A DNA stretch of 64,000 nt, taken from an uncultured Gammaproteobacteria bacterium (GTDB lineage Bacteria; Pseudomonadota; Gammaproteobacteria; UBA6429; Thiohalophilaceae). Numbering within the stretch: the first letter of the stretch is position 1; the number at the start of each line of letters is the position of its first letter. The position numbers were made by a program, and so were the translations under genes. The stretch lies in assembly GCA_913064945.1 (NCBI GenBank), contig CAJYAN010000004.1, positions 50,001-114,000 on the forward strand, given 5' to 3'. Below are positions 1 through 55,524 of the stretch, one piece after another. The notes beneath the pieces are model-generated. The model was not told the origin of the DNA. It ran no database searches and saw nothing but the letters and a program-made list of their open reading frames with translations.

Positions 1-2460
<2,460 letters not shown>

Positions 2461-42966: not shown

Positions 42967-43035
42967 TGTCAGCCTCTGCAAATGTATAAAGCCATTGGTA
43001 GGGCAGGCAGACGTAGTCATAACGTCAACGGCTGT

Positions 43036-43124
43036 GGTAACCCCGCTATCATAAGTCATTACGACTCTCTAGACCGGTAGCTTTGCGTCCCCGACTTTCG
43101 TTCGAGTTTGCCCTTAATCTCACC
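43036..43124 (-). ncRNA. Cyclic di-GMP class I (GEMM) riboswitch
   Basis: Read on the minus strand, the segment carries the conserved GEMM-I blocks in order: GGGCAAAC, a short arm closed by a GAAA tetraloop, GGGGACGCAAAGC, CCGG with the tetraloop receptor, a second arm (AGTC/GACT), and GCGGGGTTACC. The end helix GGTGA (43124-43120) pairs with TTACC (43040-43036). The spacing fits the Vibrio Vc2 aptamer. The aptamer ends 70 nt before the ATG of DUF1631 at 42966. No T-run terminator is seen, so control is probably at translation. This is read from conserved sequence, not from a covariance search. Confidence 0.93.
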
Positions 43125-52487: not shown

Positions 52488-53030
52488 CTATTGGGTCATT
52501 GGTCGCTTTTGCAGTTTTCTTTGCAGGGTGCGTCGGTGCATGCTAAGGGCGCGAGCCGCCGAAGAGATATTCCCCTCGTGTTCAGTCAAGACCCGTTGCA
52601 GGTGCTCCCATTCCAGTCGATTAACGGACATAGGTTGCTGGCTGATTGCCATCTCGCTATTACCCTGAACTCTTTCAAAGGCCTTTACAATATCAACGGC
52701 CTCGGCTGGCTTTGTCAGATAATGAACCGCACCAAGCTTGATCGCCTCGACAGCCGTTGCAATGCTGGAGAAACCGGTTAGTACGACCATGCGTAATTCG
52801 GGGTGTCGATGATGCAGGGCATCGATAAGGTATAGTCCGGACTCATTGCCGATTCGGAGATCGATGACCGCGTAGTCGGCGTGATCTGATTGATGCATGG
52901 CGACCTCGCTATTCTGTGCGTTTAACACCTGATATCCCAGACGTGTCAGTGCGCGTGTCATGGTGGCGCAAAAGACTTCGTCGTCATCGACGAGTAAAAT
53001 AGTTTTCTGTGGAAGGTCAGCGTCGCTCAT
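52488..53030 (-). CDS. regA: Redox response regulator RegA/PrrA
   Basis: The 180-residue product has a receiver domain (acidic triad DDD at 15-17, phosphorylated D57 in VIDLRIG, K near 107) and a Fis-type HTH at about 133-178 (HEGNISSAARALSMHRRTLQRKLQKR). This layout and the MHRRTLQRKL recognition helix are those of RegA/PrrA/ActR, regulators of respiration, carbon fixation and energy genes in response to quinone redox state. The partner kinase starts 1 bp upstream on the same strand. RegA is not common in all gammaproteobacteria. Confidence 0.92.
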   Translation of the reverse strand: MSDADLPQKTILLVDDDEVFCATMTRALTRLGYQVLNAQNSEVAMHQSDHADYAVIDLRIGNESGLYLIDALHHRHPELRMVVLTGFSSIATAVEAIKLGAVHYLTKPAEAVDIVKAFERVQGNSEMAISQQPMSVNRLEWEHLQRVLTEHEGNISSAARALSMHRRTLQRKLQKRPMTQ

Positions 53031-53031
53031 C

Positions 53032-54303
53032 TCAGGAATGATAGCGCATCAGGGGGATAGTGATACAGGCGGTAACCCCGTGTGTCTTGCGCTCAAACAG
53101 AGTGAACTTGCCGCCGAAGCGCTCAATAATGGCATGACTCAGAAACAGGCCAATCCCCATTCCCTGTTGCTGTGGTTCGACGGGGGTCAGGCCTAATTGT
53201 TGACGGATGTCGGCATCAAGGCCAGGGCCGCGGTCATGGATTTCCAGATTTAACAGGTGGTTATCCCAGTTGGCAACGATTTCAATCTCTCCCGGTGAAA
53301 CCTGTACCGCATTGTCGAGTATATTATCGAGCGCCTGTTGCAGGGTGCGGTCCGCCAGTATGGCGGGGGACGATGTCGCCTCGGGCAGGTCGATGGTGAT
53401 GTGTGCCTGCGGGTGACGGTGATGACATTGTTGCAGCCAGTCGTTTAAAAACAGATGCACGGGCTGTGGGTGGCCGGCACTGGCGGGTAGATTGCCGGCA
53501 GCAGCGGAGAGGTTGGCGAGTGCCTCCTTGCAACGATTAACCTGTTGCTTGAGAGTCTTGAGCTGAGCCTGCTTTTCTGTCTCCGAAAGTGTCGGTTCCG
53601 ACAGCTCATCCACCAGTAGCGAGATCGTCGCCAATGGTGTGCCGAATTCGTGGGCCGTGGCGGCCGCCTGTGTTCCCAGTTCTAGCAGGCGTTCATCTCG
53701 CAGTGCCTTTTCTCTTGCCCGTGCCAGTTGTTGTTGGTGACGACGCAGGGCATTGCCCATGCCAACGACAAAATAGGCCACCAGCGTGGCGCTGACAATA
53801 AAGCCTAGCCACATACCAAAAATGTGTAGCCCAATCACCGAGGCATCATGATGGCGGTGCGGAATAATCAGTGGATAATGAAAACGGATTAGCAGGGAGT
53901 AACAGACAATGGTGGTCGCCGCGAGTATCCAGGTATGTCGTGCCGTGAGTATCGTTGCCGAGATGGTAATTGGCAGCAGGTATAAACCAGTAAAGGGGTT
54001 GCTGGCTCCGCCGGTGAGATAGAGCAACGCTGTCAGGGCGCTGACATCAACCAGCAACTGGATAAACAGCAGTGTCGGCGTGGCGGCCCGTTTACTGCGA
54101 ATAAACCACCAGGTCCAGCCATTGAACAGGGTCAATGTCCCAATGATGCCTACGGAGGAGAAATAGGGTACTTGAATTTGATAATGCAAGATGGCGATGA
54201 CAACGGCTGCGACATAGCCACTCATGGCAATGACACGGAGAAAAAACAGGCGCCACAAATTGGCATGATTCGCCTGGAGTGGCGTTTGTTCAGATCGCAG
54301 CAT
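53032..54303 (-). CDS. regB: Redox sensor histidine kinase RegB/PrrB
   Basis: The 423-residue product has about six membrane segments in residues 15-185, the ubiquinone-binding motif GGASNPF (98-104), the H-box AAATAHEFGTPLATI with His218, a cysteine at 258 in VNRCKEAL like the redox-active Cys of RegB, and an HATPase domain at the C-terminus. These are defining features of RegB. No Shine-Dalgarno precedes the ATG; a TAGAAT box ends 6 bp before it, so the mRNA may be leaderless. Two RegA-type boxes lie at 54339-54368 upstream. Confidence 0.93.
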   Translation of the reverse strand: MLRSEQTPLQANHANLWRLFFLRVIAMSGYVAAVVIAILHYQIQVPYFSSVGIIGTLTLFNGWTWWFIRSKRAATPTLLFIQLLVDVSALTALLYLTGGASNPFTGLYLLPITISATILTARHTWILAATTIVCYSLLIRFHYPLIIPHRHHDASVIGLHIFGMWLGFIVSATLVAYFVVGMGNALRRHQQQLARAREKALRDERLLELGTQAAATAHEFGTPLATISLLVDELSEPTLSETEKQAQLKTLKQQVNRCKEALANLSAAAGNLPASAGHPQPVHLFLNDWLQQCHHRHPQAHITIDLPEATSSPAILADRTLQQALDNILDNAVQVSPGEIEIVANWDNHLLNLEIHDRGPGLDADIRQQLGLTPVEPQQQGMGIGLFLSHAIIERFGGKFTLFERKTHGVTACITIPLMRYHS

Positions 54304-54338
54304 GGCGCAATTCTAACATCTGCCCGGTGCCCTCGGCT

Positions 54339-54368
54339 GCGACAATTTGTCGCGCGACACTGTGTCAC
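54339..54368. promoter_or_regulatory. Two tandem RegA-type boxes between regB and the small RNA
   Basis: Box 1 is GCGACAATTTGTCGC (54339-54353), a perfect 7-bp palindrome around one base. Box 2 is GCGAC-ACTGT-GTCAC (54354-54368), with one mismatch. Both match the GCGNC-N5-GNCGC type of consensus described for RegA/PrrA/RegR, and are exactly 15 bp apart. They lie about 43 and 58 bp upstream of the predicted regB start and about 59 and 44 bp upstream of the predicted small-RNA start. Confidence 0.7.
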
Positions 54369-54370
54369 AT

Positions 54371-54398
54371 TTGCAAACCGGGCCTCTGGCGCTAGAGT
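54371..54398 (+). promoter_or_regulatory. Plus-strand promoter of the predicted small RNA
   Basis: TTGCAA (54371-54376) and TAGAGT (54393-54398) are separated by 16 bp; the start would be about 54405. TTGCAA is palindromic. The two RegA boxes lie directly upstream. Confidence 0.6.
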
Positions 54399-54404
54399 AG
54401 CCCC

Positions 54405-54508
54405 ATCTTGTAAACATCGTTTAGGTCAAGATACTTGAACACCCCGCAACTCTACCTCTCACTTAGCGGGATCTCGCATTGCCTTTTCGAAGGGATGCGA
54501 TTTTTTTT
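54405..54508 (+). ncRNA. Predicted small RNA divergent from regB
   Basis: About 104 nt end at a strong intrinsic terminator: TCGCAT/ATGCGA with an inner CCTT-TTCG-AAGG hairpin and eight T residues (54474-54508). Upstream are two more hairpins: ATCTTG/CAAGAT enclosing TAAAC/GTTTA (54405-54432) and CCCGC/GCGGG (54443-54470), whose 18-nt loop carries the C/U-rich CTCTACCTCTCAC. No coding frame fits this span on the plus strand, and the neighbouring genes are on the minus strand, so this terminator serves no known gene. The arrangement is that of a free small RNA. Confidence 0.65.
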
Positions 54509-54520
54509 GCCTGTCGTTTG

Positions 54521-54754
54521 TTATTCAGTCGGGCGCGGCCTGACGCCAAGACTGATGAGCCTGGCGAGGAGTAAGATCCAGGGAGCGCCATGCAGGCATA
54601 GATCAAAAATATCGATGGGACGATGCAATTCACCACTGGCCAGCATGCGCAGTTTTTCCCAGACATGGGGCTCGGGTACAAAGGGTGCCAGCCCCAGGGT
54701 AAGGCAGGCAACCAGCAGCAGGCTGAGCGGGATACGATTGAGCCAGTTCAACAT
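54521..54754 (-). CDS. Small membrane protein, family of 70-80 residue 'RND transporter'-annotated proteins
   Basis: From ATG 54754 (MLNWLNRIPLSLLLVACL) the product has 77 residues with two hydrophobic segments (about 6-24 and 54-69) around a conserved polar part, EPHVWEKLRMLASGELHRPIDIFDL. Similar short proteins are often annotated as RND transporters, which the size does not support. It is 20 bp downstream of the ArsR-rhodanese gene in the same direction, so probably co-transcribed. The plus-strand small-RNA terminator ends 12 bp from its stop. Confidence 0.78.
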   Translation of the reverse strand: MLNWLNRIPLSLLLVACLTLGLAPFVPEPHVWEKLRMLASGELHRPIDIFDLCLHGAPWILLLARLISLGVRPRPTE

Positions 54755-54774
54755 AGCGATCTCATTTGTAATGT

Positions 54775-55440
54775 TTAAAGTGCGGTTTCGACAGGCATAC
54801 CCGCGGCCTTCCACTCGGGGTAGCCATCTTCCAGGCGACGAGCATCATAACCTTCACGACGCAATTTCTCCACGGCATCGTAGGACAGCATACAGTGAGG
54901 GCCACGGCAGTAAGCCACAACTTGTTGCCCGGGCGGCAACTCGGCAAGGCGCGCCTCTAGTTCATTGAGGGGGATGTTAATGGCCCCGCAAAGATGCCCT
55001 GCGCGGTACTCCTTTGCTGGCCGGACATCAACCACGGTCACCTGGGCGGTCTTGACGCGATCAAGTAATTCCCGCGCCGGGATGGCCTCAAGATCATCTT
55101 TGATGGTGAAGTAGTGGTGGATAAGTTGTTTGACCTCGGCGAGGTGGCTACTGCCAACGCGACGCAGAATCAGTAATAGCTGCACGACATCATCGCCTGA
55201 CAGGCGATAAAGGACCCGCTGGCCACGCTTGTCAGAGGTCACCAGTCCGGCCTGACGCAGTTGTTGCAGATGCTGTGAGGTATTTGCGACCGACAGGCGG
55301 CAAAGCGCCGCCAGTTCGTCGACGCCGCATTCCCGTTGCCCTAAAAACTCCAGTATTTCCAGTCGATTGGCATTACTCAGGGCCTTGCCGATACGGGCGA
55401 ATTGCTCAAATAGTTGCTGCTTGGGACCGGATTTAGGCAT
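54775..55440 (-). CDS. ArsR-family regulator fused to a rhodanese domain
   Basis: Residues about 12-105 are an ArsR winged helix (ALSNANRLEILEFLGQRECGVDEL, SVANTSQHLQQLRQAGLV) and 120-221 a rhodanese domain with the active cysteine C178 in VAYCRGPHC. C38 and C47 in the HTH part are candidate thiol or metal sites, but a pair like that of SqrR/BigR (near 41 and 107) is not seen. Such fusions are linked to sulfane-sulfur or persulfide sensing. The ATG is adjacent to an AT-rich region with three half-sites (55449-55483) that could be its operator. Confidence 0.88.
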   Translation of the reverse strand: MPKSGPKQQLFEQFARIGKALSNANRLEILEFLGQRECGVDELAALCRLSVANTSQHLQQLRQAGLVTSDKRGQRVLYRLSGDDVVQLLLILRRVGSSHLAEVKQLIHHYFTIKDDLEAIPARELLDRVKTAQVTVVDVRPAKEYRAGHLCGAINIPLNELEARLAELPPGQQVVAYCRGPHCMLSYDAVEKLRREGYDARRLEDGYPEWKAAGMPVETAL

Positions 55441-55483: not shown

Positions 55484-55524
55484 TTTAAGCTGGGTTGCAA
55501 TATATTTTTTCACCGAGGTGTCCG

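What the first reader, a model, noticed from the sequence alone, without database searches (positions are those of the whole stretch)
54339..54508. Unannotated small RNA sharing two RegA-type boxes with regB
A strong intrinsic terminator with eight T residues (54474-54508) points away from both flanking minus-strand genes and serves no known gene. Upstream are a sigma-70-like promoter (TTGCAA-16-TAGAGT), two further hairpins and, directly before the promoter, two tandem GCGAC-N5-GTCGC-like boxes. The most economical reading is a redox-controlled small RNA next to the RegB/RegA genes. The hairpins, promoter and terminator are seen directly; the RegA link is inferred.
Basis: partly seen in the sequence, partly recalled or inferred. 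Interest (0 to 1): 0.85.

Follow-up and report, generated by a model that had tools for sequence, protein, structure and literature searches.

The report
RegA-driven small RNA beside regB
A short stretch of DNA next to the redox-sensing genes regB and regA carries a switch like those found in many related bacteria and very probably makes a small RNA of about 104 letters, whose job is still unproven.

Summary
Two tandem RegA-type boxes (54339-54368), a promoter and a UUCG-loop terminator with eight T (54474-54508) are present; no plus-strand gene uses the terminator. The tandem box is conserved in 11 of 40 genomes of the order (own included), mostly beside regB, and in 25 named contig stretches. 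A -10 element lies exactly 24 nt after it in 66 of 75 sites of other genomes; the window has TAGAGT there. This sets the start near 54405.

The RNA body is different: nothing beyond the boxes aligns in relatives, and there the promoter mostly drives a protein gene. But box, promoter, short RNA and terminator recurs in three species of another genus of the family and in a large, multi-copy methanotroph RNA family absent from Rfam.

Best reading: a RegA-activated small RNA acting in trans. Main rival: a scar where the usual divergent outer-membrane gene was lost; another genome (L080) shows such a loss. The window RNA matches neither the methanotroph family nor any Rfam family. Its C/U-rich loop alone is not beyond chance. 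Expression, function and targets are untested.

The parts
54339..54353 (.). RegA-type box 1, GCGACAATTTGTCGC, perfect inverted repeat
   Evidence: sequence; conserved in relatives. Fits the R. capsulatus RegA motif SSGNVRDNHYSNCSS as quoted in PMC5506826, by hand comparison. Besides these two boxes, 9 other places of the single-box pattern in the own genome
54354..54368 (.). RegA-type box 2, GCGACACTGTGTCAC, abutting box 1
   Evidence: conserved as the second half of the tandem
54370..54376 (+). -35 element (TTTGCA 54370-54375 or TTGCAA 54371-54376), one or two bases after box 2
   Evidence: in other species the sequence after the box is mostly ATT followed by pyrimidines
54393..54398 (+). -10 element TAGAGT, exactly 24 nt after the tandem box
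   Evidence: TANNNT at offset 24 in 37 of 43 methanotroph sites and 29 of 32 other gammaproteobacterial sites (own site not counted); offsets 14-35 other than 24: at most 5
54405..54508 (+). predicted small RNA, 104 nt
   Evidence: start inferred from the -10; end from the T8 tract; fold z -2.80
54419..54440 (+). 5' hairpin of the RNA
54443..54470 (+). hairpin CCCGC/GCGGG with an 18-nt C/U-rich loop (AACUCUACCUCUCACUUA), proposed pairing region
   Evidence: C/U-richness alone is matched by 107 of 500 composition shuffles
54474..54508 (+). intrinsic terminator, UUCG loop and eight T
53032..54303 (-). regB, sensor kinase (6TM, HisKA, HATPase_c), with the boxes just upstream
   Evidence: GGASNPF and HEFGTPL read in the translation, motif meaning recalled
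52488..53030 (-). regA, response regulator with Fis-type HTH

Best explanation
The tandem RegA boxes form a class-II type activator site: RegA bound next to the -35 recruits RNA polymerase, which starts near 54405 and stops at 54508, giving a small RNA of about 104 nt. The same boxes serve regB on the other side. The RNA probably acts in trans with Hfq: its C/U-rich loop (54448-54465) pairs with purine-rich ribosome-binding sites and lowers translation of a set of mRNAs when the RegB/RegA system is active. Shown: sequence parts, conserved boxes, fixed promoter geometry, a terminator, an hfq gene in the genome. Inferred: RegA binding here, transcription, start site, pairing mechanism, targets.
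For: Tandem box conserved: 11 of 40 genomes of the order at E<=1e-4, own included; in 8 of the 10 others regB starts beside it. In 25 GTDB contig stretches (two pairs come from the same isolate) regB starts just left of the box and reads away from it in 14 of 25. Of 19 further loci (18, and L088) regB is on the left in 11. Fixed -10 spacing in 66 of 75 sites. A single box with the same 24-nt spacing to CATAAT lies before a gene that reads as SCO1/SenC-like in the own genome (L052; spacing by eye, gene label recalled). The unit box-promoter-short RNA-terminator recurs in G035, G030 and G014 of genus g15 in the same family (70, 70, 65 nt), in L209 (126 nt) and in methanotrophs: 68 of 85 box sites (up to 6 mismatches to a 30-base pattern) have T6 or more ending 60-150 nt after the expected start (one of the 68, L093, is from G065, not a methanotroph). 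The methanotroph RNAs show structure: 82.8% of cells paired, 70.1% in shuffles, at most 52.2% when slid, and an unpaired C/U-rich 9-mer in 37 of 54, 20% of shuffles. Hfq: 105.1 bits, cut-off 27.
Against: No sequence of the RNA body is found in the relatives searched. Models R1 and R2 of the methanotroph family do not match it. Its C/U-rich loop is matched by 107 of 500 composition shuffles. By the same measure two of the three g15 RNAs score nothing: their unpaired CCCUCUU is only 7 nt long. A long-complement target search gave 6 places besides the gene itself, fewer than the reversed control (7 in all, self included, against 15), and all 6 lie inside ORFs, none before a start. In many relatives the promoter drives a protein gene, so a short RNA is probably not the ancestral product. 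In Acidithiobacillus ferrooxidans RegA was reported to recognise another motif, and for PrrA no strong consensus was found (passages of PMC5506826 and PMC4263372). No expression data.
Confidence: 0.55

Rival explanations
1. Scar. The ancestral gene divergent from regB (an outer-membrane barrel protein) was lost, and the RegA promoter now meets a left-over terminator. The RNA is made but has no function.
For: Homologous barrel-type proteins stand divergent from regB in G022, G004, G016, G006, G273, G268 and G280 (homology by blastp). No match to the G022 protein in the own genome (0 candidates; that query finds 10 of 58 genomes and misses the distant versions in G016, G006 and G020, so only near homologs are excluded). 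In L080 (G065) such a loss happened: it aligns with G273 and G268 up to about +56/+64 and again from +81/+100, while both relatives hold about 1.1-1.3 kb in between with a 333-aa barrel-type gene.
Against: In L080 the retained 3' region is itself a hairpin with a C/U-rich loop plus terminator shared with its relatives, so a scar may still be an RNA gene; but its identity (78.5% and 84.1%) is only a little above that of the regB stretch (76%) and the crp-like stretch (73%), and it does not align with G280 by blastn. The window fold is better than shuffles. No relative shows the deletion joint of the window.
Confidence: 0.27
2. Firewall. RegA activates regB; the divergent start is a by-product, and the terminator only protects the converging small membrane-protein gene (ORF 54521-54814) from antisense transcription.
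For: The terminator ends 13 nt before the 3' end of the converging ORF.
Against: The divergent -10 sits at the same 24-nt spacing that other species use for genes. A terminator alone would not explain the structured RNA before it (z -2.42).
Confidence: 0.12
3. Leader or attenuator of a plus-strand gene further down, as may be the case in genus g15 where a tonB-like gene follows.
For: In G014 of g15 a gene with a TonB_C domain follows the terminator (L143).
Against: In the window the next plus-strand gene with a family match starts at 55495, behind two minus-strand ORFs.
Confidence: 0.03
4. Chance hairpins and a promoter-like sequence.
For: The generic scanners list nothing here.
Against:: fixed geometry and about 0.3% chance for a strong terminator in that stretch.
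Confidence: 0.03

Closest known systems
PcrZ (and PcrX) of Rhodobacter sphaeroides
   Same: Trans-acting small RNAs regulated by PrrA, the RegA counterpart, balancing the response to falling oxygen (passages of PMC8307010, and PMC4263372).
   Different: Alphaproteobacterial; PcrZ and PcrX also depend on FnrL and AppA. No sequence comparison was made here. The window RNA is in a gammaproteobacterium and shares its boxes with regB.
RegA-box small RNAs of methanotrophs
   Same: Tandem box of the same type, same 24-nt spacing to the -10, mostly 75-100 nt, strong terminator often followed by GCCTG as in the window; unpaired C/U-rich stretch in 37 of 54.
   Different: The RNA mostly starts with AACUCUU, pairing with AGAGU; models R1 and R2 do not match the window RNA.
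anti-hemB (RF02837), Burkholderia
   Same: Hairpin CCCCGC...GCGGG with a C/U-rich loop followed by a terminator; only Rfam match to the stretch at E<=10.
   Different: 13.0 bits, cut-off 49.5, E 1.6: not a member.
3'-UTR module of the divergent barrel gene in G273, G268, G280 and, without the gene, L080 (G065)
   Same: Hairpin with C/U-rich loop plus terminator, downstream of a RegA-type promoter.
   Different: Part of an mRNA 3' end in three of the four; similarity to the window is marginal (45 and 39 of 1000 shuffles as good for L080 and L133, 197 and 238 of 1000 for L131 and L132).

Membership tests
RegA/RegR-type regulated promoter | Inverted repeat matching the published RegA or RegR motif | tested here: met
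   By hand against motifs quoted in PMC5506826: box 1 fits SSGNVRDNHYSNCSS fully and GNGRCRTTNNGNCGC with 1 mismatch; box 2 has 3 and 2 mismatches
RegA/RegR-type regulated promoter | Site conserved next to regB and at fixed distance from a -10 | tested here: met
RegA/RegR-type regulated promoter | RegA binding and RegA-dependent expression | not testable with these tools
   needs footprint or ChIP and a regA deletion
Intergenic trans-acting small RNA | Own promoter and intrinsic terminator, no coding sequence | tested here: met
   by sequence only; among ORFs of 80 aa or more the only plus-strand one starting inside (TTG 54435) runs through the terminator; shorter ORFs not listed
Intergenic trans-acting small RNA | Conserved RNA body in related species | tested here: not met
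   only boxes align; no second genome of the genus among those searched
Intergenic trans-acting small RNA | Base-pairing targets | tested here: inconclusive
   no long complement before a start; short seeds not tested
Methanotroph RegA-box RNA family (A1) | Match to its covariance model | tested here: not met
   R1, R2 (window). R2 matches 21 of 23 methanotroph loci outside A1 at E<=1, 15 of 23 at E<=0.01; not all independent: L157 is the same place as L149, L172 carries the RNA of L171
anti-hemB RF02837 | Rfam gathering score 49.5 | tested here: not met
   13.0 bits
PcrZ | Sequence or structure homology to PcrZ | not tested
   no PcrZ sequence fetched; PMC3479615 is not held

The most novel reading that the evidence does not exclude
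RegB/RegA in gammaproteobacteria commonly works through small RNAs. A conserved class-II RegA promoter has been coupled, again and again, to unrelated short RNAs, many with C/U-rich stretches aimed at ribosome-binding sites. These RNAs (one beside regB here, several copies per genome in methanotrophs) could be the unknown intermediary through which RegA controls genes it does not bind, such as tonB and the TonB-dependent receptor in Methylomonas sp. DH-1.
Probability: 0.38. Interest if true: 0.8.

Novelty: new variant of a known kind. Interest (0 to 1): 0.6.

Why it matters
RegB/RegA is a global redox switch. In Methylomonas sp. DH-1 loss of regA lowers tonB and tbdr although ChIP showed no appreciable RegA binding at their promoters, and the authors write that the intermediary remains to be identified (passages of PMC13274454). 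A family of RegA-driven small RNAs is a direct, testable candidate; whether strain DH-1 itself carries copies was not checked here. For the window organism it predicts that switching regB on also switches on a small RNA from the same boxes.

Tried and rejected
Membership in Rfam families: only a non-significant anti-hemB match. Homology to the methanotroph RNAs: not found; one search ran with strict filters and no positive control inside that call. Homology to the barrel-gene 3'-UTR module: marginal. Long-complement target search: nothing useful. A 3'-UTR module like that of G273 behind the barrel genes of the window's family: none found; the scan (32 sources) gave 12 hits in all, of which those in the window at 54443, L080 at 2170, L131, L132 and L133 are the relevant five and the other 7 are elsewhere. 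An RNAalifold structure of A1 kept only the terminator, so the 5' stem was written by hand for R2.

Literature searches for a RegA-driven small RNA in gammaproteobacteria or for methanotroph small RNAs: (listings with starts of abstracts, several of them capped); I saw none that names one. The library holds open-licence papers only. Papers seen: outline, abstract and passages of PMC13274454; passages only of PMC4263372, PMC8307010, PMC5506826, PMC5688073 and PMC3521395.

Full report
Setting. The window is G000:C4:50001-114000 of a 3.2-Mb genome. regA (52488-53030) and regB (53032-54303) lie on the minus strand: Pfam gives 6TM_PilS, HisKA and HATPase_c for RegB, Response_reg and Fis-type HTH for RegA. 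The translation shows GGASNPF and HEFGTPL, which I recall as RegB hallmarks. To the right a small membrane-protein ORF (within 54521-54814; no Pfam match, label recalled) and an ArsR-rhodanese gene are also on the minus strand. Between them is the stretch in question.

Observation. The RNA folds better than shuffles with and without its terminator (a slightly longer version less clearly). Strong terminators are rare: 4 on both strands of the window, this one included.

The boxes. A DNA search with 54330-54520 found matches at E<=1e-3 in 12 of 58 genomes including the own one (37 of 58 at E<=1, where chance matches dominate). A repeat over the 40 genomes held for the order gave 11 of 40 at E<=1e-4. 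These matches outside the own genome cover only the boxes. In 8 of the 10 other genomes regB starts beside the box (positions; G033 has too little sequence on that side, in G015 the box stands behind regBA). A degenerate pattern without mismatches hit 25 contig stretches titled Gammaproteobacteria, Chromatiales, Thiotrichaceae, methanotrophs, Methylotenera or plain proteobacteria. regB starts just left of the box and reads away from it in 14 of 25 (3 of the others have 224 nt or less of left sequence). In a class-wide sample 16 of 369 genomes, own included, had a match at E<=1e-4; regB is on the left in 11 of 19 loci examined (18 of them, and L088).

The promoter. TANNNT stands exactly 24 nt after the tandem box in 37 of 43 methanotroph sites and 29 of 32 other sites (boxes with up to 3 mismatches, own site not counted). 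The window has TAGAGT there. A lone box in the own genome has CATAAT at the same distance before a gene that reads as SCO1/SenC-like (L052). Besides the two window boxes the single-box pattern has 9 other places in the own genome, 4 of them inside ORFs; the reversed control pattern has 3.

What the promoter drives elsewhere. In 11 of the 19 loci an ORF of 60 aa or more starts within 400 nt on the right. The products: a barrel-type protein (often with YVGLCCGKCGGNMP; Pfam Phenol_MetA_deg in one of three scanned; the versions from G022, G004, G016, G006, G273, G268 and G280 are linked by blastp), TonB, and genes that read as TonB-dependent receptors, ExbB and ferredoxins (these three labels are my reading). 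But in genus g15 three of four species have a 65-70 nt unit ending in a terminator; two of the three have an unpaired CCCUCUU; the fourth has no such terminator. L209 has a 126-nt unit. In methanotrophs 100 of 201 genomes match the query L071 at E<=1e-3, some by the box alone, often with several copies, some in tandem. Of 85 box sites in 83 fetched loci (2 of the 83 loci, L093 and L097, are from G065) 68 have the T tract at small-RNA distance.

The methanotroph family. 54 copies were aligned. The 5' stem ACUCU/AGAGU and the terminator stem together give 82.8% paired cells, shuffles 70.1%, slid versions at most 52.2%. One measure is weak: 9 pairs with changes on both sides against 7.4 in shuffles, 74 of 500 as high. 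All 7 terminator pairs change on both sides; of the 6 pairs of the 5' stem only 2 do. An unpaired C/U-rich 9-mer is present in 37 of 54, 20% of shuffles; the linker often reads UAUCCUUCU. Rfam does not name them: nothing at E<=0.5 over 13 loci but one unrelated hit; in 10 loci at E<=10 two copies in L121 reach 27.5 and 24.7 bits for suhB/MmgR, cut-off 41.

Is the window RNA one of them? Models R1 and R2 do not match it (their window matches lie near 48.8 kb and are not significant). L209 matches R2 weakly (25.4 bits, E 0.019). The window RNA is built on the same plan but is not shown to be a relative.

The scar question. No near homolog of the barrel protein is in the own genome. In L080 the gene is missing while G273 and G268 have it between the same flanks, so promoter-terminator fusions arise by gene loss. 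There the kept 3' region is a hairpin with a C/U-rich loop plus terminator, the same plan as the window's 54443-54508. Direct similarity is marginal. So loss of the gene and birth of a small RNA are not exclusive.

Mechanism. C/U-rich loops facing purine-rich ribosome-binding sites are a usual way for small RNAs to act (recalled). For the window RNA the loop is not richer than chance allows (107 of 500 shuffles). Hfq is encoded. A long-complement search found no target. PrrA-regulated small RNAs are known in Rhodobacter (passages of PMC8307010 and PMC4263372). In Methylomonas sp. DH-1 RegA affects tonB and tbdr without appreciable binding (PMC13274454: outline, abstract and passages); the intermediary is unknown.

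Verdict. The RegA link is well supported by comparison, not by experiment. A short RegA-driven RNA is likely (about 0.8); a working regulatory RNA is a little more likely than not (0.55, lowered from 0.58); a scar is the main rival (0.27).

Noticed in passing
L089-L124 (without L093 and L097), L144-L190; alignment A1: A large, multi-copy family of RegA-box-driven small RNAs in methanotrophs, some in tandem copies, not named in Rfam; models R1 and R2 built.
   Followed up: partly
window 54501-54513 and methanotroph loci: The T tract is very often followed by GCCTG or GCCTA (36 of 94 stem-bearing T6 runs in methanotroph loci), as in the window; meaning unknown.
   Followed up: partly
L080:2170-2249; L131:2034-2107; L132:3204-3277; L133:1018-1095: 3'-UTR hairpin with C/U-rich loop plus terminator behind a RegA-promoter barrel gene; in L080 the gene is gone and promoter and 3'-UTR are joined. 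A possible 3'-UTR small RNA.
   Followed up: partly
L121:1474-1554 and 1282-1363 (minus): Two methanotroph copies score below cut-off for suhB/MmgR (RF00519, 27.5 and 24.7 bits, cut-off 41), an alphaproteobacterial small RNA (recalled).
   Followed up: no
G000:C3:85386-85400 (L052:1501-1515): Single RegA-type box with a -10 at the same 24-nt spacing before a gene that reads as SCO1/SenC-like.
   Followed up: no
L142:3670, L021:1505: In G015 and G012 the tandem box precedes a ferredoxin-like gene (label by eye); in G015 it stands behind regBA rather than before regB.
   Followed up: no
window 43033-43122 (minus): c-di-GMP-I riboswitch (RF01051, 70.3 bits).
   Followed up: no
window 54310-54315 (minus): On the regB side TAGAAT lies 23 nt from box 1 and only 6 bases before the regB ATG; regB may be leaderless or start further in. 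Read by eye.
   Followed up: no
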